Origin: Actinomycetospora termitidis
GTDB taxonomy: Bacteria; Actinomycetota; Actinomycetes; Mycobacteriales; Pseudonocardiaceae
Length of the DNA stretch: 64,000 nucleotides
Reading direction: 5' to 3'
Assembly (NCBI RefSeq): GCF_030286555.1
Contig: NZ_JASVWF010000010.1
Coordinates: forward strand, 124,001-188,000
Both the position numbers and the translations under genes were made by a program. The number at the start of each line of letters is the position of its first letter. Within the stretch, counting starts at the first letter, position 1. Below, in pieces: positions 42,968-55,224 of the stretch. Under the pieces are notes generated by a model. It searched no databases and was not told the origin of the DNA. It saw nothing but the letters and a program-made list of their open reading frames with translations.

Positions 42968-43891
42968 TTGGTGGACACCGTCGCCACCGTCGGGCGCGGC
43001 CGGGAGACCGAGCTTCTCCAGGCCGCGCTCGACGGCGGTACCCATGTCGTCCTGGAGGGCCCGCCGGGCACCGGGAAGTCGACCCTGCTGCGCGGGGTCG
43101 CGCACTCCCGCAGCATCGGCTTCCACTTCGTCGAGGGGAACGCCGAGCTGACGCCGGCGCGGCTGGTCGGGCACTTCGACCCGGCCCGCGTGCTGGCCGA
43201 CGGGTACGTCGAGGAGATCTTCGTCGACGGCCCCCTCGTCTCGGCGCTCCGCGAGGGCGGGCTGCTCTACATCGAGGAGCTCAACCGCGTCCCCGAGGAG
43301 ACCCTCAACGTCCTCATCACGGTCATGAGCGAGGGCGAACTGACCGTCCCGCGCCTCGGCCGGATCCCCGCCGAGACCGGCTTCCGCATGGTCGCGGCGA
43401 TGAACCCGTACGACGCGGTCGGTACGGCGCGGATCTCCGCGGCCCTGCACGACCGCACGTGCCGGATCGCCATGGGCTACCAGTCCGCGGCCGACGAGGC
43501 GCAGATCGTGGCGGGACGCGCGCCGGTCACCCCGGACGCGTGGCGGGAGAAGGCCGTCGACCTCGTGCGCCGCACCCGCGAGCACAAGGACCTGCGGACC
43601 GGCTCGTCGGTCCGCGGCGCCATCGACCTCGCCCGGGTCACCGTCTCGCTGGCCGCGACCCGCGACCGGTCCGTCGACGACTGGCGGGTCGGACTCGACG
43701 CCGCCACGGTCGCGCTATCGGGCCGGATCAAGGTGATCGAGTCGGCGCGGCGCACGCCGGAGGAGGTCATCCGGGAGCTCTACGAAGCGGTCTTCGGGCG
43801 TGAGCCGTCGGAGGACGATCCGTCCGACTCCTCCGGGGATGATGCGTCGGGGGGAGCCAGAGCCCGCCCGGCGCGGGCAGCGGAGGGGTAG
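42968..43891 (+). CDS. MoxR-family AAA+ ATPase
   Basis: A 307-residue AAA+ protein of the MoxR/CbbQ/CoxD type. Walker A is GPPGTGKST (about 31-39), Walker B LLYIEELNRV, sensor 1 in AAMNPYD, and arginine-rich helices follow. The C-terminal 30 residues are Asp/Ser/Ala-rich. MoxR ATPases work with vWA partners to insert or remodel metal cofactors or complexes. TTG at 42968 has GGAG 9 nt upstream and GTG at 42971 is next to it. The vWA gene starts at or shortly after its stop, and the ADH upstream is a possible client. Confidence 0.88.
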   Translation: MVDTVATVGRGRETELLQAALDGGTHVVLEGPPGTGKSTLLRGVAHSRSIGFHFVEGNAELTPARLVGHFDPARVLADGYVEEIFVDGPLVSALREGGLLYIEELNRVPEETLNVLITVMSEGELTVPRLGRIPAETGFRMVAAMNPYDAVGTARISAALHDRTCRIAMGYQSAADEAQIVAGRAPVTPDAWREKAVDLVRRTREHKDLRTGSSVRGAIDLARVTVSLAATRDRSVDDWRVGLDAATVALSGRIKVIESARRTPEEVIRELYEAVFGREPSEDDPSDSSGDDASGGARARPARAAEG

Positions 43892-44040
43892 ACCGCAAGT
43901 CCCGCCAGAAGGCCGCGCCGAAGACGTCGCGGGCGGACCTCGCCCGTCGTCACGAGGACTTCGAGTCGGTCTCGCCGCAGGTCGGCGAGATCGACCAGGA
44001 GACCTTCGACGCGCTCCTGCGGGAGGACCCGGGGGCCGCG

Positions 44041-44793
44041 ATGGAGCTCCTGGTCGACATGACGAAGGCGACCGACGAGACGCTGCGGGAGAAGGCACGC
44101 CGACTGGCGGGCACGCTCCTGCTGGAACGCTCCAAGGTCGGGCCGTCGCGCGCCCGGGGCTCCTCCAAGCTCCGGCTGCGTCCGGCCGACCGCGGCGGGG
44201 ACATCGACATCGACGCGTCGATGGAACCGCTGGTCGAGGCGCGGGCCGCCGGCCTGCCCCCGCACCTGGAGGACCTCCACGCGATCGACTGGGCCCAGCC
44301 GGGCATCGCGTTGTGCCTGCTCGTCGACACCTCCGGGTCGATGACGGGCGGGCGACTGGCGGCGGCGGCCCTCACGGCGGCCGCGTGCGCGTGGCGGGCG
44401 CCGGAGGAGTTCGCGGTGGTGTCGTTCGAGCGGGAGGCGACCGTGCAGCGCGGGCTGCACCAGCCGACGCCCCCGGAGATCCTGGTCGACCAGCTCCTGG
44501 CCCTGCGGGGTCACGGGGTGACGGGGTTGTCGGCGGCGATGCGTTCGGCGGCGGACCAGCTCGTGGCGGCGCGCTCGTCCCGACGGGTCACGGTGCTGCT
44601 CTCGGACTGCCGGGCGACCGACGACAAGGACCCGGTGCCCCTCGCCGCGTCCCTGGACGAGCTGCTGATCCTTGCCCCGGCCGACGACTCGTCGGACGCC
44701 GTCGCGCTGGCGGAGGCGGTCGGGGCGCGGGTCGAGACGATGGCCGACCCGTCGGAGGCCCCGGCGGCGCTGGCGCGGTTGCTCGACGCGTAG
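44041..44793 (+). CDS. von Willebrand factor A domain protein (MoxR partner)
   Basis: 250 residues from the first normal start codon, ATG 44041. The vWA domain holds the MIDAS motif LLVDTSGSM near residue 100, and later VTGLSAA (Thr region) and VLLSDCRATDDKDP. High-quality coding sequence in the same frame continues upstream to 43891, right at the MoxR stop (DRKSRQKAAPK, DLARRHEDFESVSPQV), with a GGAGGGG site before it. That 50-codon stretch has no ATG, GTG or TTG, so either the original start was lost or an unusual codon is used. CoxE-like vWA proteins act with MoxR ATPases in cofactor maturation. Confidence 0.75.
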   Translation: MELLVDMTKATDETLREKARRLAGTLLLERSKVGPSRARGSSKLRLRPADRGGDIDIDASMEPLVEARAAGLPPHLEDLHAIDWAQPGIALCLLVDTSGSMTGGRLAAAALTAAACAWRAPEEFAVVSFEREATVQRGLHQPTPPEILVDQLLALRGHGVTGLSAAMRSAADQLVAARSSRRVTVLLSDCRATDDKDPVPLAASLDELLILAPADDSSDAVALAEAVGARVETMADPSEAPAALARLLDA

Positions 44794-44809
44794 GAGGTGG
44801 CTTCGCCTC

Positions 44810-44849
44810 GTGAGCACTCAGTGGGGCTACAGCCCCACTGAGTGCTCAC
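44810..44849. terminator. Palindrome family B, copy 2
   Basis: Perfect 19-bp arms, GTGAGCACTCAGTGGGGCT at 44810-44828 and its complement at 44831-44849, separated by AC. It begins 16 bp after the vWA stop, and the convergent carrier-protein stop codon (44846-44848) lies inside the right arm. Confidence 0.8.
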
Positions 44850-45106
44850 ATGGGGCTCGCCCCCACCTCCACGAGGAAGTCGGCCATCGCCGCGACCGAG
44901 CGGAAGCGCTCGATGTCGAAGTCGTCGAGCGGGAGCTGCACGCCGAAGGTCTCCTCCAGCGCCACGATCAGCGTCACCAGCGCCAGGGAGTCGATGAGGC
45001 CGGCCTCGAGGAGGTCCTCCTCGGCGGACGGCACGTCGATGCCCGCCCGGTCGCTCACCACGTCCGCCACCTGGGACCGGAGCGCGGCCGTGGTCTCGGT
45101 CAACAT
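44846..45106 (-). CDS. Free-standing acyl/peptidyl carrier protein
   Basis: An 86-residue carrier protein. The phosphopantetheine attachment site is Ser40 in EAGLIDSLALVTL, within a four-helix pattern (ALRSQVADVVSDRAGI, LVTLIVALEETFGVQL, SVAAMADFLVEV). ATG at 45106 shares its A with the stop of the adenylation gene (TGATG) and has AAGGAGAG upstream. The adjacent amino-acid-activating enzyme would load it, making a type II NRPS-like thiolation module of the D-alanyl carrier protein style. Confidence 0.9.
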   Translation of the reverse strand: MLTETTAALRSQVADVVSDRAGIDVPSAEEDLLEAGLIDSLALVTLIVALEETFGVQLPLDDFDIERFRSVAAMADFLVEVGASPM

Positions 45107-46686
45107 CACTCGCTCTCCTTCGGCGCCGGTCGGAACCGCTCCCGCAGCACCGGCCGGTCGATCTTCCCGTTCACGTTCTTCGGCAGTTCGTCGAGCACGA
45201 GCCACTTCGCCGGCACCATGTAGCGCGGCACGAGCGTCCCCACCGCCCGGCGCATGTCGTTGACCGGCAGCTCCGCGCCCTCGGTCACGGAGTACGCGCA
45301 GCAGATCGTCGTGCCCTCGAACCCGCCGAGGTCGACGCCCACCACCGCGCACTCGCGCACGCCCGACACGGTGTTCACCGCGGTCTCGATCTCGCCCAGC
45401 TCGATCCGGTAGCCGCGCGACTTGATCTGCGAATCGGTCCGTCCGAGGAAGTGGACGACGCCGTCGGCGTCCGCGCGGGCCAGGTCGCCGGTCTTGTAGA
45501 TCCGCTCTCCGTCCGGCCCGGTGACGAACGCGGCGTCGGTCTTCTCCTGGTCGCGCCAGTACCCCGGCGACAACCCGACCCCGCCGATGTACAGCTCGCC
45601 GATCTCCCCGACGGCCGCCTCCCGGCCCTCGTCGAGCACGACCAGCGACTCGCCGTCGCACGGCCGCCCGATCGGCACCGGGACGGACTCGTCCTCCGGG
45701 ACCGAGGGAACGTCGTAGTACGACGAGGCGATCGTCGCCTCGGTCGGCCCGTACAGGTTCGTGAACCGCACCCGCGGGAGCTTGCGCATCCAGTGCGCGA
45801 GGATCGGCGTCGGCAGCACCTCGCCGCACCACAGCAGCCGCTCCAGCGCCGGGAAGTCGTCCTGCCCGACGGCGTCGAACCGCGCCAGGTAGGTCAGCAC
45901 CGACGGCACCGAGAACCACTGCGTGAGCTCCCGGTCGCGGATGAACGCCGCCGTCCTCCGCGCGTCCAGGCCCAGCGACGCCGGCACGAGGTGCAGCTCC
46001 GCACCGGCGGCGAGCGTCGCGTAGATGTCGAACGTCGAGAGGTCGAAGTGCAGCGGCGGGTGCCCCGAGATCCGGTCGCCCGGCTTCGTCCCGAAGTGCC
46101 CGAGCGCCCAGTCGACGAACGCCGACACCATGTCGTGCGTGATCATCACGCCCTTCGGGATCCCGGTGGATCCCGAGGTGAAGAGCAGGTGCGCGAGCGG
46201 ATCCTTCCCGACGTCGGGTCGGGTCGGGTCGAGCGCCGCGATGTCACCCGCGGCGAACGCCGTCGTGAAGCGCTCCCCCTCCAACGGCGACTCCAGCGAG
46301 CCCACCGTGAGGTCCGGGAGGCCTTCGTCGACGAGGCCGTCGACGAGCGTCTCGGCCGTCGCGTCCGCGAGCAGCACCGTGGGCTCGGCGGAGCGGACGA
46401 TCCGCGCGACCCGCGCGGCCGGGCTCGCCGAGTCGACCGGCACGTAGACCCCGCCGGCCTTGAGCGTCCCGATCAGCGACGCGATCGTCCACGGCGTCTT
46501 GGCCGCGAGCACCCCGACGCGGTCGCCCGGCGCCACACCGCGGTCGACGAGCATCGACGCGATCCGGTTCGTCAGCGCGTCCAGGTCGGCGTAGGAGAGG
46601 GTCTCGACGCCGTCCGGCCCGACCAGCGCCGTCGAGCCCGGGGAACGTTCGGCCGAGGCGGTGAGCAGGTCCTCGAGACGAGTCAC
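45106..46686 (-). CDS. Amino-acid adenylation enzyme (NRPS A-domain / DltA-like)
   Basis: A 526-residue stand-alone adenylation enzyme. A3 is LLFTSGSTGIPKGVMITH, A4 HFDLSTFDIY, A5 TNLYGPTEAT, A7 YKTGDLA, A8 GRTDSQIKSRGYRIELGEIE and A10 PKNVNGKIDR with the catalytic Lys. The Asp after Phe in A4 is the residue that holds the alpha-amino group in A domains, so the substrate is an amino acid; which one cannot be read by eye. GTG at 46686 overlaps the monooxygenase stop (GTGA). It charges the carrier protein encoded next. Confidence 0.9.
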   Translation of the reverse strand: MTRLEDLLTASAERSPGSTALVGPDGVETLSYADLDALTNRIASMLVDRGVAPGDRVGVLAAKTPWTIASLIGTLKAGGVYVPVDSASPAARVARIVRSAEPTVLLADATAETLVDGLVDEGLPDLTVGSLESPLEGERFTTAFAAGDIAALDPTRPDVGKDPLAHLLFTSGSTGIPKGVMITHDMVSAFVDWALGHFGTKPGDRISGHPPLHFDLSTFDIYATLAAGAELHLVPASLGLDARRTAAFIRDRELTQWFSVPSVLTYLARFDAVGQDDFPALERLLWCGEVLPTPILAHWMRKLPRVRFTNLYGPTEATIASSYYDVPSVPEDESVPVPIGRPCDGESLVVLDEGREAAVGEIGELYIGGVGLSPGYWRDQEKTDAAFVTGPDGERIYKTGDLARADADGVVHFLGRTDSQIKSRGYRIELGEIETAVNTVSGVRECAVVGVDLGGFEGTTICCAYSVTEGAELPVNDMRRAVGTLVPRYMVPAKWLVLDELPKNVNGKIDRPVLRERFRPAPKESE

Positions 46687-47696
46687 TCGCCGCCACCCAC
46701 TGCCACCACGCCCGCCCGGCGGAAGACCTCGCCGATGTGGTCGAGCTCCTCGGCCGACGGCGGGATGTCCAGCACGAACACCCGGGTGCCCTGCCCGGCG
46801 TAGTGCGCGATCGCGGCGGCCACGCGGTCGTAGGAGCCGACCAGGTACGGGCAGAACGTCTGGTAGTTCTGGAACGGCCCGAGCCAGAACGGGTCGGGCT
46901 CGCCGTCGACGGTCACCGGCTGGGCCTTCGCGGCCTCCGAGAGCTGGGCGTGCCACGACGAGTCGCTCGCCCGCATCGCCATGGAGTGCGCGATCTGGCC
47001 CTTGCGGTCGGTCGGGAAGCGCTCCTCCGCGACCTTCCACGCATCGGCGGTGTCCTCGCGCGCGACGATCCCGACCCGCACGCCCCCGCCGGTCGGGGCC
47101 TCGGAGGTCTCCTGGCCGAGCGGCTCCGGGTACCGGATCGGCACCGCGCCGATCGCCTCGGCCGCCGCGCGGCCGGCGGGCGACGACCCGGAGATCAGCA
47201 CCTCCGGCATCAGCTCGGCCGGCAGCGCCGGGGCGAGCTTGAGGTTGTGCACCTGGTGCCAGCGACCCTCGTGCGTGACGGTCTCGCCACGCAGCAGCGC
47301 CATGAGGATCTGCGTGTACTCGGTGGTGCGCGCGTAGCGGTCGTCGTGCTCGGTCGGGTCGCCCAGTGCGAGCAGGTCGTTGCGGAACCCGCCCGCGAGC
47401 ATGTTGAGGTGCACCGACCGGCCGTGCAGGTAGGACAGTGAGGACACCATCGACGCCGCCGTGAACGGGTGCATGTACACCGGCTGCACCGCGACCAGCG
47501 GGGCGAGGCGCTCCGTGGCCGTGATCGCGTGCTGGGCGACCAGCCACGGGTCCGCGATGCCGTTGTCGGTGTAGACGAGCATCCCGGTACAGCCCGCGGC
47601 CTCGCTCCACCGCGCGACCTCGGCGACCGCTCCCGCGTACTCCCCCGCCGGCACGTCCTTCGACTGCGGGCAGGTGGAGTAGATCTGGACGCTCAC
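46683..47696 (-). CDS. Luciferase-like flavin-dependent monooxygenase
   Basis: A 337-residue member of the bacterial luciferase/alkanesulfonate monooxygenase family. It has the TIM-barrel start VQIYSTCPQS, YTDNGIADPWLVAQHAI, VYMHPFTAASMVSSLSYL, LNMLAGGFRNDLLALGD (flavin site) and EVLISGSSPAGRAAA. It uses reduced FMN supplied by a separate reductase. In NRPS-type pathways such enzymes hydroxylate carbon or nitrogen of carrier-bound amino acids, which fits its place between carbamoyltransferase and A-domain genes; all are coupled by GTGA overlaps. Confidence 0.88.
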   Translation of the reverse strand: MSVQIYSTCPQSKDVPAGEYAGAVAEVARWSEAAGCTGMLVYTDNGIADPWLVAQHAITATERLAPLVAVQPVYMHPFTAASMVSSLSYLHGRSVHLNMLAGGFRNDLLALGDPTEHDDRYARTTEYTQILMALLRGETVTHEGRWHQVHNLKLAPALPAELMPEVLISGSSPAGRAAAEAIGAVPIRYPEPLGQETSEAPTGGGVRVGIVAREDTADAWKVAEERFPTDRKGQIAHSMAMRASDSSWHAQLSEAAKAQPVTVDGEPDPFWLGPFQNYQTFCPYLVGSYDRVAAAIAHYAGQGTRVFVLDIPPSAEELDHIGEVFRRAGVVAVGGGE

Positions 47697-49435
47697 CGCG
47701 CGGTGCCTTCCACGACGAAGCCCTCGATGTACAGCCGGTCGAGGGCGATCCGGGCGAACGTGTCGACCGCGGTGGCCGGGTCCATGATCAGCGGCTGGCC
47801 CTTGACGTTGAACGACGTGTTCACGACGCAGCCGGTGCCGGTGCGCTCCTTGACCTGCGCCAGCAGAGACGCGAACGTCGGGTTCAGCCCGGGCGTCACG
47901 GTCTGGATCCGGGCCGAGTCGTCCTCGTGCACGATGCCGGACAGGACCGGCTTCGCCTCCGGCCGCACGTGGGCGGTGCAGAGCATGTAGTGGTCCGGCT
48001 CGAAGCCGCGGGTGACGAAGAGCCGGTCCCGGTCGTCGACGTGCACCGCGGGGGCGAACGGACGGAACGCCTCGCGGAACTTCACCGCCGAGTTGATCCG
48101 GTCCTTGATCCGGTCCCCGTCGGGGCGGGCCAGGATCGAGCGGTTGCCCAGCGCGCGCGGCCCGAACTCCATGCGGTCGTGGAAGACCGCGATGATCCGG
48201 TCCGCAGCGATGTCGTCGGCGGCCGCCGCGAGGTACTCGTCGGTCATCCCGACCTCGCGCCACTGCAGGTCGGGCCGCGCCTCGAGCACGGCCCGCACCT
48301 CGTCGGCGGAGTAGCGGGCGCCGAGGTAGGGGTCGAACGGCGTCGCGACCGGCTTCAGGTCCTCCGCCACCGCGTACGCCGCGCCCAGCGAGGTCCCGTC
48401 GTCCCCGGAGGCCGGCTGGACGAACAGGCGCTGCACGCCGGGGAGGTCGGCGATCGACTGGTTGGACTTGCAGTTGAGGAACGTCCCGCCGGCCAGCGCC
48501 AGGTTCGTCTCTCCGGTCTTCTCCAGCCAGTACCCGACGAGGTCCACGAGCAGGTCGGTCAGGCACTCCTGCATCGAGGCCGCGAAGTCGGCCTCGTCGC
48601 GCTGGATCGAGCCGTCCGGGAGCGACGGGGTGAACGTCTGCTCCTCGAGCATCGTCCGGGCGTACGGGTAGCCGTGTTCGGCGTCGGAGAGTGCTCCCGT
48701 GGGCCAGTCGATCACGACGGAGCCCTTGTCGTGATCGAATCGGGTGAGCTTGCGGAAGACCTCGCGGTAACGCTCCGGGTCGCCGTAGGGCGCGAGGCCC
48801 ATGACCTTGTACTCGTCATTGTTGAACTGGAAACCGAGGAACCGCGTCCCGATGGAGTACAGAATGCCGAGGGACGCGGCGATCGGCTGCGAGTGCAGCT
48901 TCTCCAGCTCACGCCCGTCGAAACGGAAGATCGTCACCGAGTCGACCTCGCCCATGCCGTCGGAGACGACGGCGAGCCCACGGTCGAACCCGCTGGGCAC
49001 GACGGCGGACAGCGCGTGGGCCCGGTGGTGCTCTACCGGCGTCAGCGCCGCGGCCAGCTGCGGCCACCCCGCGTCGGTGAGCGCGTCGCGCACCGTCTGC
49101 GAGCTCAGGACCTCCTTGAAGTGGGTCCGGTTCAGGACGAACGCCCGCTCGTGGCGGTCGTAGTCGAAGCCGTGGGCCACGACGTCGACGTCGTCGGCGG
49201 ACACCCCCGCCTCGGCCAGGCACCAGGCGATGGCCTGCCGGGGCAGGGCGCCGGTGCCCTTGTCGCCGTCGAACCGCTCCTCGGACGCGGCGGCCACGAG
49301 CGTCCCGTCGACGATGATCGCGGCGGCGCTGTCGAGTCCCTGACAGATTCGCGCGTCGAGCGGATCGATGTCCGGGTTGTCCTCGTGAAGCTTCCGTTGC
49401 GAATTCGGAAGACCACTGAGTCCGAGAACGATCAT
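47693..49435 (-). CDS. Carbamoyltransferase (NodU/CmcH/TobZ family)
   Basis: A 580-residue enzyme that carbamoylates a hydroxyl group using carbamoyl phosphate and ATP. The Kae1-like part carries the metal motif VEHHRAHALSAV (His136/137/140), VVSDGMGEVDS and FNNDEYKVMGLAPYG. The YrdC-like C-terminal part carries FGPRALGNRSILA and NTSFNVKGQPLI. The 5' end uses less GC-rich codons than its neighbours (around 48830-48880 and 49380-49435), a possible sign of transfer. It is the first gene of the four-gene operon, and the monooxygenase gene overlaps its stop. Confidence 0.92.
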   Translation of the reverse strand: MIVLGLSGLPNSQRKLHEDNPDIDPLDARICQGLDSAAAIIVDGTLVAAASEERFDGDKGTGALPRQAIAWCLAEAGVSADDVDVVAHGFDYDRHERAFVLNRTHFKEVLSSQTVRDALTDAGWPQLAAALTPVEHHRAHALSAVVPSGFDRGLAVVSDGMGEVDSVTIFRFDGRELEKLHSQPIAASLGILYSIGTRFLGFQFNNDEYKVMGLAPYGDPERYREVFRKLTRFDHDKGSVVIDWPTGALSDAEHGYPYARTMLEEQTFTPSLPDGSIQRDEADFAASMQECLTDLLVDLVGYWLEKTGETNLALAGGTFLNCKSNQSIADLPGVQRLFVQPASGDDGTSLGAAYAVAEDLKPVATPFDPYLGARYSADEVRAVLEARPDLQWREVGMTDEYLAAAADDIAADRIIAVFHDRMEFGPRALGNRSILARPDGDRIKDRINSAVKFREAFRPFAPAVHVDDRDRLFVTRGFEPDHYMLCTAHVRPEAKPVLSGIVHEDDSARIQTVTPGLNPTFASLLAQVKERTGTGCVVNTSFNVKGQPLIMDPATAVDTFARIALDRLYIEGFVVEGTAR

Positions 49436-49522: not shown

Positions 49523-51532
49523 TCAGAGCCGCTCGGCCGTCTCCGTCGCTCCCGGGAACGGGTGGCCCAGCACCGAGACGAACGCCCGCTGGTAGGCGTC
49601 GACCATGGCGTCGTCGGTGTAGAGCGCCAGCGCCCGCTCCCGCCCCGCCCGTCCGAGGCGGGCGAGCTCGGCGCGGTCGTCGAGGACGCGACGCAGCGCC
49701 TCGGTCCACGCCGGGACCGTCACGGGGTCGACGACCACGCCCGCGGCGCCGAAGTCGAGCATCTCGGGCACCGACCCGCTCGCCGACGCCATCACCGGCA
49801 TCCCGCGCGTCATCGCCTCGACCATGACGAGCGGGAACGCCTCGAATCCGCTGGGCACGCACAGGACGTCGGTCTCGGCGAAGGCGTGGTCCGGCCCCGG
49901 GGACACCCCCCGCCAGCGCACCCGGCCCCGCAGGTAGGCCGGGGTCTCGGCCTCCATCTCGGCCTGGTCAGGCCCGACGCCGAAGATGTCCAACGTCCAC
50001 TCGTCGGGCCGCGCGAGGGCGTCGAGGGCCTTGATCAGCAGCGTCGTGTTCTTGTAGGTCTTCAGCCGGGTCAGCATGCAGAAGCGCACCGGCCCGGTCG
50101 CGGACACCTCGCCCAGCGGCTCCCCCGGGGTCAACCCGTTCGGCGCGACCATCACGGTGTCGGTGAGCCGCTGGTGGCGCGACAGGTCGGTGTGGTGCTG
50201 CCGGGACAGCACGAGCAGGGCGTCCGCGGTGCGCAGCGCCCGGGCCTGCGCCGCGGAGTAGGTGGGCCGCTCGAGCTCGGCCGGGTCGTGCGCGGCGGGG
50301 ATCCAGTACCGCCGCTGACCCGCCGCCCGGCCGAGCGCGCGCCACGCCGTCGCGAACCCGATCTCGGTCTTCGTGCAGCCCCCGACGACGATGGCCTCGT
50401 CGGTCGCGGCGACGTCGACGACCGGCTGCCACCAGGGCTGCATGAGCAGGCGCACCCGGGGGTCGAGCTCCGCGATGTACTGCCCGAGGTGCTGGAGGAC
50501 CACGAGGGTCACCGGGTGCCCGCGCTCGACGAGCTCGTTGGCGAGCACCACGCGCTGGCGTTCGGCGCCGCCGGGCCGCAGCCCGTTGCTGATCACGACG
50601 ACGGCGGGTCGTCCCCCGGCCTCGCGGGCCAGGGCGTCGAGCCGGGCCCGACGGGGACCGCGCTTGGAGCGCTGCACGCGGTCGAGCAGCGTGGAGCCGG
50701 CGGCGTAGAGCGACCCGCGCCCGGCGTTGTGCTCGAGGCCGAGCACCATCACCTGCGCGCTGCGCAGCAGGTCCGAGCCGCGCAGGGAGGCCAGGGGGTC
50801 GTCGGCGACGGTGCCGCCGGAGGAGTGCCGTACCTGGGGCCCGGCCTCGTCGTCGACCAGGCGCAGGTCCCACCCGGCCTTCCGGGCGGCGGGCTGCCAC
50901 GTGGCGTCCTCGCCGTAGACGAAGAACTGCTCGTCGAACGGGCCGAGGGCGTCCCAGGCGTCGCGGGCGATGAACAGCGCGCACCCGGTCAGGTAGCCGT
51001 CCACGTGCTCGGGTGCGGACGGGTACAGGTCGCTGATCGTGCGGCCTCGGAGCCGCTTCGCGTAGCCCGCCGAGTTCAGCAGGTTGCGCACCACGCCCTG
51101 CTCCCGGTGGGCCACGTCCCACGGCTGGTCGCGGCCTTCGGGGTCGAGCACGGTCGGCGAGACGACGGCGACCTCGGGCTCCTCGAGTACCTGGCGGGCC
51201 CGCGTGCAGGGCCCGAGGAGCTCGGCGTCCGGGTTGAGCTGGAGCACGTCGTGCTCGGGGACCTGGGCCATCAGCGCGTTCATGGCGGCGATGTAGCCGA
51301 GGTTGAACTCGGAGAACGTCCACGTGACGTCCGGCCGGGACGCCGCCAGCTCGCGCACCGCGGGCGAGCCGGAGGACGCGTTGTCCCACACGTGCACCCG
51401 CGCGTCGGGCAACCACTTCTCCACGCTCGCGAGCGCACGGTCGAGCAGGTCGGCGCGCCGGTAGGAGACGATCAGGACGGCCAGACCCCGCCCGTCGGGT
51501 CGAGCTCCGCTGCGCTTCGTCTCCTGGGACAC
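49523..51532 (-). CDS. Two-domain glycosyltransferase (GT2 plus GT4)
   Basis: A 669-residue fusion. The N-terminal GT2 domain (about 15-260) has LIVSYRRADLLDRAL, VWDNASSG, LNPDAELLG and EDATWQPAARKAGW. The C-terminal GT4/GT-B domain (about 300-660) has VISNGLRPGGAERQRV, RFCMLTRLKTYKNTTLLIKA and the donor-site PSGFEAFPLVMVEAMTRGMPV. Such fusions build rhamnan- or galactan-type glycans. GTG start at 51532. It lies 87 bp upstream of the carbamoyltransferase operon on the same strand and might glycosylate that product, but a cell-envelope role is equally likely. Confidence 0.85.
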   Translation of the reverse strand: MSQETKRSGARPDGRGLAVLIVSYRRADLLDRALASVEKWLPDARVHVWDNASSGSPAVRELAASRPDVTWTFSEFNLGYIAAMNALMAQVPEHDVLQLNPDAELLGPCTRARQVLEEPEVAVVSPTVLDPEGRDQPWDVAHREQGVVRNLLNSAGYAKRLRGRTISDLYPSAPEHVDGYLTGCALFIARDAWDALGPFDEQFFVYGEDATWQPAARKAGWDLRLVDDEAGPQVRHSSGGTVADDPLASLRGSDLLRSAQVMVLGLEHNAGRGSLYAAGSTLLDRVQRSKRGPRRARLDALAREAGGRPAVVVISNGLRPGGAERQRVVLANELVERGHPVTLVVLQHLGQYIAELDPRVRLLMQPWWQPVVDVAATDEAIVVGGCTKTEIGFATAWRALGRAAGQRRYWIPAAHDPAELERPTYSAAQARALRTADALLVLSRQHHTDLSRHQRLTDTVMVAPNGLTPGEPLGEVSATGPVRFCMLTRLKTYKNTTLLIKALDALARPDEWTLDIFGVGPDQAEMEAETPAYLRGRVRWRGVSPGPDHAFAETDVLCVPSGFEAFPLVMVEAMTRGMPVMASASGSVPEMLDFGAAGVVVDPVTVPAWTEALRRVLDDRAELARLGRAGRERALALYTDDAMVDAYQRAFVSVLGHPFPGATETAERL

Positions 51533-51616: not shown

Positions 51617-52678
51617 TCACTGGCGCACCGCATGCGAGACCAGCCACTCGCCGTCGAGGTGGCTGCACAGCGACGTGGTCGAGCTCAGCAGGCCGAGCAC
51701 GTTGGCCTCGGCGTGGACCAGTGCCCGGGCGTTCTTGCGGACGAGCACCCCGGGCCGCCCCAGCAGCCCGGCGGTGACCGGCTCGAGCCGGCCCTGGACG
51801 GCGGCCGCGCCCTGCGTGGCGGCGTGCGCGACGAGGTGGTCGAGCACCGGCTCCGGGTCGGGCCCGGTGACGCCGATCTGGAGGACCTCGGCCACCCCGC
51901 CGGGCGGGAGCAGGTAGAGGAACCAGCCGAGCACCCGCCCCTGCGGTCCGCGGACGAGCTCGGCGGAGAGCGCGCCGCGGTCGAGACGGCGCAGTTCGGC
52001 GAGGACCCACTCCAGCCAGGCAGGGTCGTAGTCCGGCCGCAGCCGCAGCCGACGGCCCGCCGCCGCAACCTGCTCGGCAAGGGTCTCCGCGGTGAGCGGC
52101 TCGGTGGTCCCGGCGGGTCGCGGCGGGGGCGGGACGAAGCGCCCGCCGAGGGCGTCGACCGGCCGGGACAGCACCCGGGCGGCCCGTCCGAGGCGGTCCG
52201 AGCGCCGGGACACCAGGCTCTCCGCCGTCGAGCCGGGCGAGAGCACCCGGAACCACGCCAACGAGGCGCCCGGCAACTCCTGGCCGCCGAGGCCGAGCCA
52301 GAGGCCGCGGGACTCGTCGTTCGCGCGGTCGGCGACGGTGAACTCCTGCGGCCCACCCAGCAGCTTGCGATTGAGCAGGGCGCCCACGCCCTTCGACCGC
52401 CAGTCCGGGTGCGCGACGAGGTTGCTGCTCACCGCCATCCGCACCTTGCGGCCGTCGAGCACCATGCGCCGGGTGCTCGCGGCGATGAACCCGACGACGC
52501 CGCCGTCGGAGCCCTCGTGCACCAGCGGCGGGATCTCGGGGTCCGCCCACGGGTCCTCGATCAGGATCCGCTGGAGGTAGGGCGCGACGCGTTCGGCCGA
52601 CGCCCCTCCCATGACCTGGGCGAACAGGGTGCTGACCTGCGGGAGGTCGCTGCGCTCCAGCGCACGGATGCCGGCCAT
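51617..52678 (-). CDS. GNAT-superfamily acyltransferase-like protein (double domain)
   Basis: A 353-residue protein. The N-terminal half is a recognisable GNAT domain (IRALERSDLPQVSTLFAQV, GGVVGFIAAS, the acetyl-CoA-loop-like SNLVAHPDWRSKGVGALLNRKLL near residue 90). The C-terminal half looks like a second, degenerate GNAT/FemAB-like domain (GRVLGWFLYLLPPGGVAEVLQIGV). The same layout is seen in proteins of surface-polysaccharide clusters. ATG at 52678 was chosen; GTG at 52687 is possible. Palindromes flank the gene on both sides. Confidence 0.7.
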   Translation of the reverse strand: MAGIRALERSDLPQVSTLFAQVMGGASAERVAPYLQRILIEDPWADPEIPPLVHEGSDGGVVGFIAASTRRMVLDGRKVRMAVSSNLVAHPDWRSKGVGALLNRKLLGGPQEFTVADRANDESRGLWLGLGGQELPGASLAWFRVLSPGSTAESLVSRRSDRLGRAARVLSRPVDALGGRFVPPPPRPAGTTEPLTAETLAEQVAAAGRRLRLRPDYDPAWLEWVLAELRRLDRGALSAELVRGPQGRVLGWFLYLLPPGGVAEVLQIGVTGPDPEPVLDHLVAHAATQGAAAVQGRLEPVTAGLLGRPGVLVRKNARALVHAEANVLGLLSSTTSLCSHLDGEWLVSHAVRQ

Positions 52679-52763
52679 CCGCGGCACTCTACGACCGTCC
52701 GCGACCGGCCCACGAGCCGCCGTCGTCCACCTCGTCGTCGCCGCTCGGGGTCCCGAAACGCAC

Positions 52764-52827: not shown

Positions 52828-55224
52828 CTACGCGTCCGTGCCGTCCGGGACGTGCTCGGTCTCGGACTTGCCCGCGTACTCCGGGCCGGCCTGGTGGCGG
52901 GTGCCCGGGTCCGAGGCGGAGGCGCCGTGGATGGCGCGCCACACCGCCTCCGGGGTCAGCGGCATGTCGATGTGCCGCACCCCGAGGGGCGAGAGGGCGT
53001 CGATGACGGCGTTGTGCACCGCCGGCGTCGACCCGATCGTCCCGGACTCCCCGATCCCCTTCGCCCCGATGGGGTTGAGGTGGGTCGGGGTCTCGGTGTT
53101 GGAGGCCTCGTAGGAGCAGAGGTCCGCCGCCGAGGGGATCGTGTAGGACGCCAGGTTGCCCGTGGTCGGGTTGCCGTCCTCGTCGAACGTGACCCGCTCG
53201 AAGAGCGCCTGCGAGATGCCCTGCGCGATCCCGCCGTGCTGCTGACCGGCGACGAGCATCGGGTTGAGGATCTTGCCGCAGTCGTCGACCGCGACGTGGC
53301 GCAGCGGCTTCACCATGCCGGTGTCGAGGTCGACCTCGACCACCGAGATGTGCGTGCCGAACGGGAAGCTCGACTGGCCCTGCTTGAAGTCGAGGTCCTC
53401 GCGCAGCGCGCGCCCGTTGCCGTCCTCGAGGCCGGTGCCGTCCTCCGACGCCGTGGCGACCTGCTGCCAGGTGATCGTGTTGCCGGCGACGCCGCGCACC
53501 CCGAAGCCGTCGTCGGAGTGCTCGATGTCCTCGACGGCCGCCTCGAGCAGGTGCGCCGCGATCTCACGCGCCCGGGAGACGAGCTCCTGGGACGCGTTGT
53601 GGATCGCCGAGCCGCCGGTCTGCAGCGAGCGGGAGCCGAGGGTGCCCGCACCGGAGCGCACCACGGCGGTGTCGGACTGGACGACCTTGACCTTCTCCAT
53701 CGGCACGCCCAGCACCGAGGAGGCGAGCTGCGCGAACGCGGTCTCGTGGCCCTGGCCGTGCGCGCTGGTGCCGGCCATGACGGTGAAGGTGCCGTCGGGG
53801 TGGGCCTGCGCGGAGCCGTACTCGCCGTCGAGGCCCAGCGGGGCGGTGACCTCGACGTAGGAGCCGACGCCGATGCCGAGGGCGACCCGGTCGCCCGCGT
53901 CGCGGCGGCGCTTCTGCTCGGCGAGCAGCTCCTGGTAGCCGGAGGCCTGGATCGCGGCGTCGAGCGCCTTCTCGTGGTCGGCGTTGTCGTACTCGGCGCC
54001 GGTCAGCGAGGTCATCGGGTACTGCTCGGGCTGCAGGTAGTTCATGCGGCGCATCTCGAGCGGGTCCACGCCGATCTCGTCGGCGGCCATGTCGATGATG
54101 CGCTCGAGCAGCTGGGTCGCCTCGGGACGCCCGGCCCCGCGGTAGGCGCCGACCGTGGTGGTGTTGGTGACGACGGTCTTCCAGGCGAAGTCGATCGCCG
54201 GGATGTCGTAGACGCCCTGGGCCAGCAGCTGGGTGAGGCTCGGGAGGATCGTGCCGACCGCGGGGTAGGCCCCGCCGTCGCCGATGACCGAGGCGCGCAG
54301 CCCGACGATCTTGCCGCTGCGCTTGACGCCGAGCTCGACCCACTGGACCTGGCTGCGCCCGTGGACCATCGAGAGCATGTTCTCCGAGCGCGTCTCGTTC
54401 CAGCGCACCGGCCGGCCGAGCAGCAGCGCCGCCTTCGCGGCGATCGTGTACTCCGGGTAGGCCGTGGCCTTCGGCCCGAAGCCACCACCGACGCGCGGCG
54501 CGACGACGCGGACCTGGTCGGCCTCGAGGCCGAGGTCGCCGGCGAGGGCGTCCCGGGCGCCGTGCGGGGTCTGAGTGGAGAGCCAGAGGGTGATGCCGCC
54601 CTCGGGCGTGCCGGGCTCGGCGACGCACGCGTTCGGCTCCATCGGCACGCCGGCGACGCGCTGGTTGAGGAACTTGCCCTCCACCACGACGTCGGCCTCG
54701 TCGAAGATGCCCTCGACGTCGCCGGTGCCCGCGCCCGCCGCGAGGTTGCTGCCGACCTCGTCGAAGAGCAGCGGCGCGCCCTCGGCGAACGCCTCTTCGA
54801 TGCCGGTGACGGCGGGTAGCGGCTCGATGTCGGGGAAGACGGTCTCGGCCGCGTCGAGCGCCTGGCCGGCCGTCTCGCCGATCACCGCGGCGACGATGTC
54901 GCCGACGAACCGGACCTTGCCCTTGGCCAGGTGCGGGCGGGCCATGGCGTCGGGGACGACGCCCGGCAGCCCGGGGCGGTCGGCCACGTCGAGGTCGGCC
55001 GCGGTGTAGATCGCGACGACGCCCGGCATGGACCGGGCCTCCTCGACGTCGATGTCGCCGAGCGTCCCGTGCGCGATCGGCGACCGGACGAAGACCGCGT
55101 GCAGCGACCCCTCCACGGGCAGGTCACCCGTGTAGAGGCCGGCACCGGTGATCAGCTCCTGGTCCTCGGTGCGCTTGACCGGGTGTCCCAGGATCGAGCC
55201 ACCGGTGTGGGTCGTGACGGACAC
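52828..55224 (-). CDS. Molybdenum hydroxylase large subunit (xanthine/CO dehydrogenase family)
   Basis: A 798-residue molybdopterin-cytosine-dinucleotide-binding subunit. It begins with GGSILGHPVKRTED. Cofactor motifs include PRVGGGFGPKA, GAYRGAGRPEATQ, GTSAHGQGHETAFAQ and the catalytic Glu in GAKGIGESGTIG. The active-site loop AYRGAGR is not the AYxCSFR loop of true (form I) CO dehydrogenase, so this is a form II/aldehyde-purine type hydroxylase. The FAD and iron-sulfur subunits normally encoded beside it are absent from the window. GTG at 55224 with AGAGGAG upstream; terminator at 52764. Confidence 0.92.
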   Translation of the reverse strand: MSVTTHTGGSILGHPVKRTEDQELITGAGLYTGDLPVEGSLHAVFVRSPIAHGTLGDIDVEEARSMPGVVAIYTAADLDVADRPGLPGVVPDAMARPHLAKGKVRFVGDIVAAVIGETAGQALDAAETVFPDIEPLPAVTGIEEAFAEGAPLLFDEVGSNLAAGAGTGDVEGIFDEADVVVEGKFLNQRVAGVPMEPNACVAEPGTPEGGITLWLSTQTPHGARDALAGDLGLEADQVRVVAPRVGGGFGPKATAYPEYTIAAKAALLLGRPVRWNETRSENMLSMVHGRSQVQWVELGVKRSGKIVGLRASVIGDGGAYPAVGTILPSLTQLLAQGVYDIPAIDFAWKTVVTNTTTVGAYRGAGRPEATQLLERIIDMAADEIGVDPLEMRRMNYLQPEQYPMTSLTGAEYDNADHEKALDAAIQASGYQELLAEQKRRRDAGDRVALGIGVGSYVEVTAPLGLDGEYGSAQAHPDGTFTVMAGTSAHGQGHETAFAQLASSVLGVPMEKVKVVQSDTAVVRSGAGTLGSRSLQTGGSAIHNASQELVSRAREIAAHLLEAAVEDIEHSDDGFGVRGVAGNTITWQQVATASEDGTGLEDGNGRALREDLDFKQGQSSFPFGTHISVVEVDLDTGMVKPLRHVAVDDCGKILNPMLVAGQQHGGIAQGISQALFERVTFDEDGNPTTGNLASYTIPSAADLCSYEASNTETPTHLNPIGAKGIGESGTIGSTPAVHNAVIDALSPLGVRHIDMPLTPEAVWRAIHGASASDPGTRHQAGPEYAGKSETEHVPDGTDA

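What the first reader, a model, noticed from the sequence alone, without database searches (positions are those of the whole stretch)
44846..49435. Compact carbamoyltransferase / luciferase-like monooxygenase / A-domain / carrier-protein operon
Four genes with GTGA or TGATG overlaps encode a NodU-type O-carbamoyltransferase, a luciferase-like monooxygenase, a free-standing amino-acid adenylation enzyme with all core motifs, and a carrier protein with Ser40. There is no condensation, thioesterase or ketosynthase domain. Seen directly: domains and coupling. Known: A domain plus carrier tether an amino acid; luciferase-like enzymes in such pathways hydroxylate carrier-bound amino acids; NodU-type enzymes carbamoylate hydroxyls. 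Inference: an amino acid is tethered, hydroxylated, then O-carbamoylated to give a small carbamate or N-carbamoyloxy product. I do not recognise this as a described pathway.
Basis: partly seen in the sequence, partly recalled or inferred. Interest (0 to 1): 0.78.

Follow-up and report, generated by a model that had tools for sequence, protein, structure and literature searches.

The report
Carrier-bound amino-acid decoration gene set
A small set of bacterial genes, found in very different bacteria, looks built to load one small amino acid onto a carrier, oxidise it, sometimes cap it, and hand it to an acyl-transferring enzyme, probably for a sugar polymer on the cell surface; this has not yet been tested at the bench.

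Summary
The genus is Actinomycetospora. Two things change the picture. The carbamoyltransferase is optional (12 of those 16). (2) The core trio, monooxygenase + A domain + carrier, recurs outside the genus: 39 further loci, with the A gene directly downstream in 35. There the cap enzyme varies: formyltransferase in 10, small acetyltransferase in 8, carbamoyltransferase in 14. The A-domain ten-residue code is identical in 36 of 53 (window included), even at about 36% overall identity. Many flanks hold exopolysaccharide genes, and in two Actinomycetospora genomes the GNAT gene lies among glycosyltransferases. Best reading: a carrier-bound, oxidised, capped small amino acid is transferred onto a surface glycan. 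Substrate, oxidised atom and acceptor are inferred. Against: monooxygenase relatives on plasmids work with other A domains, and one strain's published O-polysaccharide shows no amino sugar.

The parts
51617..52687 (-). p6: tandem-GNAT acyltransferase (356 aa), proposed transfer enzyme
49523..51532 (-). GT2-GT4 fusion glycosyltransferase (669 aa)
   Evidence: PF00534, PF13692, PF00535; of 10 genus genomes with a match at E<=1e-60 it adjoins p6 in 8, lies one gene away from a p6 piece in G013, and G009 has it without p6
47693..49435 (-). NodU/CmcH-type carbamoyltransferase, optional cap enzyme
   Evidence: PF02543 + PF16861; 310.6 bits to NovN structure 9s2t, HH..H and EFGPRALGNRSI motifs aligned
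46683..47696 (-). luciferase-like flavin monooxygenase
   Evidence: PF00296; SsuD relative, but several SsuD pocket residues changed
45106..46686 (-). free-standing amino-acid adenylation enzyme, code DLFFLCLIAK
   Evidence: TIGR01733 above cut-off; code read
44846..45106 (-). carrier protein, phosphopantetheine Ser40
   Evidence: PF00550 48.8 bits; the Ser follows D or N in the carrier sequences printed
44809..44850 (.). 19-bp perfect hairpin between the operon and a convergent vWA gene, overlapping the carrier stop codon
   Evidence: -47.1 kcal/mol for the 66-nt fold, z -8.6; no T-run terminator found

Best explanation
The operon makes and delivers a modified aminoacyl group. Step 1 (family knowledge): the A domain adenylates one small alpha-amino acid and loads it on the carrier's Ser40 phosphopantetheine. 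Step 2 (inferred): the monooxygenase, using reduced FMN from a flavin reductase, oxygenates the carrier-bound aminoacyl group. Step 3 (inferred, optional): a one- or two-carbon cap is added: carbamoyl here, formyl or acetyl in other bacteria. Step 4 (inferred): the tandem-GNAT enzyme p6 moves the group from the carrier thioester to an amine, most likely on a sugar of an exopolysaccharide or its precursor, with the neighbouring glycosyltransferase acting on the same glycan. It works like a soluble, GNAT-based counterpart of the Dlt system with a butirosin-like oxidation on the carrier.
For: Trio order conserved: the A gene starts within 82 nt downstream of the monooxygenase gene in 35 of 39 non-genus loci, 15 of these with a 4-nt overlap; carrier found in 34 of 39 and p6-family genes in 25 of 39. 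p6 has exactly the same genus distribution as the monooxygenase, 16 of 18, and overlaps it by 4 nt in all 7 genomes that have both at the second site. Nine Bradyrhizobium loci and L092 carry C6 instead, a profile relative of p6 (97.4%, E 1e-11). A-domain code identical in 36 of 53 (window plus 52 scan loci), including two A domains only 36% identical overall (L105, L109); none of 14 A domains of 35-43% identity found in a draw of 396 Actinomycetota genomes (three candidates scored per genome), with no such monooxygenase within 1.5 kb, has it. L110 has a flavin reductase (PF01613) between carrier and p6. Glycan context: of 98 flanking ORFs scanned, 10 are GT4, 4 Wzy_C, 4 polysaccharide deacetylase, 3 sugar transferase; XrtA-type kinase and O-ligase models match in L086, below cut-off; in G011 and G012 p6 lies beside GT4 genes, on another contig than the trio.
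Against: No biochemical evidence for any step. Azospirillum halopraeferens Au4 has a published O-polysaccharide of Rha, Fuc, Xyl and Glc without amino sugars (PMC4902059, abstract and passages); the genome record L084 is of A. halopraeferens DSM 3675 (the same type strain, recalled) and has trio + formyltransferase + a weak p6 relative, so the target there would have to be another glycan. On plasmids, all 7 records with monooxygenase relatives at E<=1e-40 are 40-54% identical; in the 5 I opened the A domains have other codes and the neighbours are halogenases, P450s, PPTases or NRPS genes, so the family also serves natural products. Read by eye, the flanks of the second Actinomycetospora site and of the Bradyrhizobium loci are not glycan genes. 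Two of the 14 control A domains without the monooxygenase also have a GT4 match nearby (L131, L132), so glycan context is not special to this set. 14 of 39 loci show no p6-family gene; five of these (L076, L078, L091, L106, L108) run off their contig close behind the trio. SsuD's Arg226 is kept (R207).
Confidence: 0.5

Rival explanations
1. One reading: the operon makes a free small carbamate amino acid (tether, hydroxylate, O-carbamoylate, release).
For: All four enzymes present and coupled. Monooxygenase relatives on plasmids lie in natural-product-like clusters with halogenase, P450, NRPS and PPTase genes. FVG, a free N-O amino acid of Pseudomonas fluorescens WH6, requires a NodU-family carbamoyltransferase gene, and its formyltransferase is postulated to act last (PMC8067088, passages).
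Against: Carbamoyltransferase not found in 4 of 16 genus genomes with the trio. No thioesterase among the 8 proteins scanned at the site; an acyltransferase with a fold of thioester-to-amine acyltransferases is in the set (reaction of that fold recalled). Glycan genes are the commonest recognised flank families elsewhere.
Confidence: 0.22
2. Natural-product or signalling metabolite whose last step is acylation by p6 with ordinary acyl-CoA; the carrier-bound amino acid is a side building block.
For: NMT and GNAT enzymes mostly use acyl-CoA donors (recalled); PF13527 match in relatives.
Against: p6-family genes occur together with a separate formyl or acetyl cap gene in 12 loci (L079, L080, L082, L084, L085, L087, L089, L095, L097, L110, L113, L114), so a capping role for p6 would be redundant.
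Confidence: 0.15
3. A Dlt-type D-alanylation system of cell-wall polymers.
For: After TIGR01733 and one NRPS model, DltA models score next for the A domain; CGEVLP motif (likeness to DltA recalled); carrier's best model is DltC.
Against: DltA 282.8 vs cut-off 559.85 and DltC 32.2 vs 52.35; no MBOAT (DltB family) match in the window's genome while the control search finds it in B. subtilis; Dlt has no monooxygenase (recalled).
Confidence: 0.04
4. Sulfonate-sulfur scavenging (SsuD-type) genes that happen to lie beside an A domain.
For: Closest solved relative is SsuD (1m41), 92 bits; below-cut-off hits to TIGR03565; SsuD Arg226 is kept as R207.
Against: Positions aligned to SsuD His228, Arg297, Cys54 and His333 are G209, Y278, I47 and P313, and none of the 54 aligned rows (window + 53 loci) has the SsuD residue at any of the four; SsuD roles of these residues are recalled. 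Linkage to A + carrier.
Confidence: 0.02

Closest known systems
Butirosin side-chain pathway (BtrI/BtrJ/BtrK/BtrO/BtrH)
   Same: Amino acid on a free-standing carrier, oxidised there by a flavin monooxygenase of this superfamily, then transferred to a sugar amine (BtrO hydroxylation: PMC2922099 passages; the rest recalled).
   Different: Activation by an NRPS-type A domain instead of the ATP-grasp ligase (recalled), a tandem GNAT instead of the papain-like BtrH, and swappable formyl/acetyl/carbamoyl caps.
Dlt system (DltA/DltC/DltB)
   Same: A domain + small carrier, CGEVLP motif (recalled for DltA) and DltC-like carrier; cell-surface polymer as proposed target.
   Different: Below DltA/DltC cut-offs, no MBOAT match in the genome, extra monooxygenase, cap enzymes and GNAT.
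LgrA-type initiation (formyltransferase-A-carrier of linear gramicidin)
   Same: Best PDB match of the A domain is LgrA; a carrier-bound amino acid can be formylated (recalled for LgrA), as the formyltransferase gene in 10 loci suggests.
   Different: Stand-alone proteins, no peptide elongation, added monooxygenase.
4-formylaminooxyvinylglycine (gvg) operon
   Same: NodU-family carbamoyltransferase and formyltransferase in one small amino-acid pathway.
   Different: No A domain, carrier or luciferase-like enzyme among the gvg genes in the passages seen; product is free.

Membership tests
NRPS-type amino-acid adenylation enzyme (TIGR01733) | Score above curated cut-off; Asp at code position 235 | tested here: met
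   378.9 vs 317.4 bits; D215 in HFDLS (position mapping recalled, but it returns codes that I recall as Ser- and Gly-type for other A domains)
DltA D-alanine ligase (TIGR01734) | Score above 559.85 | tested here: not met
   282.8 bits
Dlt system | MBOAT membrane acyltransferase DltB | tested here: not met
   PF03062: no match in the own genome (97.7% complete), control positive
NodU/CmcH O-carbamoyltransferases | Both Carbam_trans domains with conserved motifs | tested here: met
   PF02543 128.3 bits, PF16861 192.4 bits; motifs aligned with NovN and GdmN
NodU equivalog (NF041651) | Score above 1000 | tested here: not met
   131.7 bits
Luciferase-like monooxygenases (PF00296) | Domain above gathering score | tested here: met
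   95 vs 27.9 bits
SsuD alkanesulfonate monooxygenase (TIGR03565) | Score above 518.2 and sulfonate pocket residues | tested here: not met
   105.2 bits; His228, Arg297, Cys54, His333 positions changed, Arg226 kept
Phosphopantetheine carrier (PF00550) | Domain and attachment Ser | tested here: met
   48.8 bits, Ser40
GNAT superfamily (p6) | GNAT domain or fold | tested here: met
Butirosin-type pathway | ATP-grasp aminoacyl-carrier ligase and papain-like transferase (recalled) | tested here: not met
   Activation gene is an A domain and the transferase gene is GNAT-like
Glycan decoration by this set | Modified aminoacyl group on a polysaccharide | not testable with these tools
   Needs biochemistry; context only

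The most novel reading that the evidence does not exclude
The monooxygenase hydroxylates the amino nitrogen of carrier-bound glycine or alanine, and the alternative caps (formyl, acetyl, carbamoyl) turn it into N-acyl-N-hydroxy amino acids: a hadacidin-like hydroxamate or a hydroxyurea-type group, which p6 then attaches to surface polysaccharides. This would be a widespread, unrecorded way to put metal-binding hydroxamates on bacterial glycans. It would explain why three unrelated cap enzymes swap for each other, as formyl- and acetyltransferases do after N-hydroxylation in hydroxamate siderophores (recalled).
Probability: 0.2. Interest if true: 0.85.

Novelty: new variant of a known kind. Interest (0 to 1): 0.6.

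Why it matters
If right, bacteria from nine phyla (as labelled) share one compact cassette for building an oxidised, capped amino acid on a carrier and handing it to a tandem GNAT, with the cap exchanged between lineages. That would link NRPS-type activation to glycan decoration without peptide synthesis, give a function to an unannotated GNAT family, and give concrete predictions (one small amino acid, +16 Da, then +28, +42 or +43 Da caps) that carrier-protein mass spectrometry can check.

Tried and rejected
Rejected: SsuD function (pocket residues changed); Dlt membership; the small membrane genes behind the carrier at the second Actinomycetospora site as members of the set (the one tested is in 17 of 18 genus genomes, also where the set lies elsewhere or is absent). 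Viral contigs: 16 stretches matched a pattern, none encodes a relative.

Led nowhere: promoter and terminator scan, 0 hits. Ten paper searches, of which I saw listings and then opened three papers, showed no paper describing the set among the titles and abstracts listed; the library is open-access only, and MIBiG and antiSMASH were not available, so absence in print is not shown. A Foldseek search of p6 and a structure of C6 could not be run. All 50 rows are N-myristoyltransferases, so other GNAT families are not excluded.

Own errors: two outgroup rows were translated in a wrong frame and the rooted drawing is meaningless; the tree was rebuilt without them and only that change count is used (phylum labels are read). 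Both are quick trees; 20 of 53 inner branches were weak. The code mapping to GrsA numbering and the DltA comparison rest on recall; DltA itself was not aligned here.

Counts to read with care: the scan used two peptide patterns, so 53 loci is a lower bound and biased to relatives that keep them. The mutual exclusion of caps is descriptive: 9 of the 39 loci are Bradyrhizobium. The flanking-ORF scan: one search listed 127 ORFs from 25 of the 30 non-Bradyrhizobium loci; I dropped 29 by eye (doubtful frames, pieces of known genes, but also some long ORFs) without a fixed rule, so a bias towards glycan genes is possible; if none of the 29 is a glycan gene, GT4 is 10 of 127. The 98 include 5 AMP-binding proteins and cap or partner genes of L081, L110, L113 and L114. 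The control scored three candidates per genome.
Full report
What is there. The window lies in a genome of 6.56 Mb whose genus is Actinomycetospora, as the record titles of its 74-95% identical relatives show. On the - strand, in reading order: p6 (52687-51617), a GT2-GT4 fusion glycosyltransferase (51532-49523), carbamoyltransferase (49435-47693), luciferase-like monooxygenase (47696-46683), A domain (46686-45106), carrier (45106-44846). A 19-bp perfect hairpin closes the operon.

Genus survey. Of 18 genus genomes, 16 have the monooxygenase (74-95% identity among the other 15); the two without are G004 (83% complete) and G009 (97%). In the 43 other genomes of family and order the listed matches are at most 36% identical (the list is cut). 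p6 is in the same 16, the carbamoyltransferase in 12 of these 16. The set lies in two different places: seven genomes share the window's site (window included), nine another. At the second site the order is carbamoyltransferase (5 of 9), p6 (7 of 9), monooxygenase, A, carrier; p6 overlaps the monooxygenase gene by 4 nt in all seven, and in L067 the first four genes are chained by 4-nt overlaps. In the two genomes without p6 at the site (G011, G012), p6 lies on another contig beside its glycosyltransferase partner, with further GT4 genes and, in G012, an epimerase gene. This is the clearest glycan link in the genus itself.

Outside the genus. A scan of 84,980 species genomes with the monooxygenase alignment gave 53 loci: 14 Actinomycetospora and 39 others at 49-63% identity, labelled Gemmatimonadota, Acidobacteriota, Myxococcota, Pseudomonadota (Bradyrhizobium, Azospirillum, Thioalkalivibrio and others), Planctomycetota, Rokuibacteriota, Binatota, Deinococcota and other Actinomycetota. 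In 35 of the 39 an A gene starts within 82 nt downstream on the same strand; the misses are L085 (opposite strand), L094 (a broken A copy lies between), L100 (none found) and L111 (A upstream). Carrier: 34 of 39. p6 family: 25 of 39, counting p6 in 14 (weak in L084), its relative G51 in L114, and C6 in 10. C6 is a profile relative of p6.

Caps. Formyltransferase (PF00551, PF02911) in 10 of 39; a small GNAT acetyltransferase between A and carrier or nearby in 8, one of them only a partial match (L110); carbamoyltransferase in 14, one broken (L101), plus a weak 28% match in L092. Formyl and carbamoyl enzymes share no locus, formyl and acetyl none, acetyl and carbamoyl one (L081). On the unrooted quick tree of the monooxygenase the cap state changes at least 16 times with five states, 8 times among formyl, acetyl and carbamoyl alone. 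So the core stays and the cap is exchanged.

Substrate. My ten-residue code for the A domain is DLFFLCLIAK. It is identical in 36 of 53 A domains (the window and 52 scan loci; 21 of the 38 outside the genus). Two more lack only the last position because they are incomplete; of the other 15, 13 differ at position 239. Bradyrhizobium A domains, 36-38% identical overall, keep DLSFLC(L/I/V)IAK; L105 and L109, at 36%, keep the exact code. As a control, 14 A domains of 35-43% identity from a draw of 396 Actinomycetota genomes, with no such monooxygenase within 1.5 kb, have other codes. The same mapping returns DVWHVSLVDK and DILQLGVVWK for other A domains of the window's genome, which I recall as serine- and glycine-type. 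The Asp and the code suggest a small alpha-amino acid; which one is open. Against a strict rule: in the five plasmid records that I opened, with monooxygenase relatives of 40-54% identity, the A domains have other codes.

Monooxygenase. It is an SsuD relative that has lost four recalled SsuD pocket residues and kept one (Arg226); 89 positions are at least 98% conserved over the window and 53 loci. A flavin reductase gene in L110 fits a reduced-FMN enzyme. A precedent for such an enzyme in amino-acid tailoring is BtrO of butirosin (PMC2922099, passages read; that it acts on a carrier-bound substrate is recalled).

Context. Of 98 flanking ORFs scanned from 25 non-Bradyrhizobium loci, 10 match GT4 domains, 4 Wzy_C, 4 polysaccharide deacetylase, 3 sugar transferase, 4 AAA_31 (selection caveat under Tried and rejected); L086 holds XrtA-type kinase and O-ligase relatives, below their cut-offs. 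By eye, the second Actinomycetospora site and the Bradyrhizobium loci lack such flanks. Two control A domains without the monooxygenase also have a GT4 match nearby. The O-polysaccharide of A. halopraeferens Au4 has no amino sugar in the published structure, so in that species the acceptor, if a glycan, is another one.

Verdict. Shown: a conserved trio, a linked GNAT gene, exchangeable caps, a shared A-domain code within the scanned set, frequent glycan context. Inferred: the order of steps, oxidation on the carrier, and transfer to a glycan. Ten paper searches showed no description among the papers listed (see Tried and rejected), which does not exclude one elsewhere.

Noticed in passing
L145-L149 (plasmids of Tritonibacter, Gemmobacter, Rhizobium, Streptomyces): Relatives of the monooxygenase (40-54%) beside halogenase, P450, acyl-CoA dehydrogenase, PPTase and other A domains; in Streptomyces beside an NRPS gene with hydroxyphenylpyruvate dioxygenase and aminotransferase genes. 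Suggests a wider role in carrier-bound amino-acid tailoring.
   Followed up: partly
L110:11138-11617: Flavin reductase gene (PF01613) inside the set, between carrier and p6.
   Followed up: partly
L084:5607-6614, L114:5619-6626, L082:12070-13050: NAD-synthase-like gene near the set, with a second A-domain gene and a small carrier-like gene nearby; role unknown.
   Followed up: no
L086:12093-16681: Second A-domain gene, an aminotransferase and a protein with weak carrier and ATP-grasp matches directly after p6, inside an exopolysaccharide-type cluster.
   Followed up: no
window 44809-44850: 19-bp perfect inverted repeat without T-run between two convergent transcription units.
   Followed up: partly
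G000:C27:134231-135157: A decayed p6-like stretch (35% identity, four stops) elsewhere in the window's genome.
   Followed up: no
window 52828-55224 and 42968-44793: A molybdenum hydroxylase large subunit gene upstream and MoxR/CoxE-like vWA genes downstream flank the set at this site.
   Followed up: no
L105:10984-11649, L109:10989-11630: Hexapeptide-type transferase gene (Pfam-tested in L109, similar in L105) directly after the carrier in two loci that also have the carbamoyltransferase; possibly a fourth kind of modification.
   Followed up: no
L131-L138, L141: A related group of A domains with codes such as DLFYLALVCK in other Actinomycetota, some with GT4 matches nearby and no such monooxygenase within 1.5 kb.
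   Followed up: no
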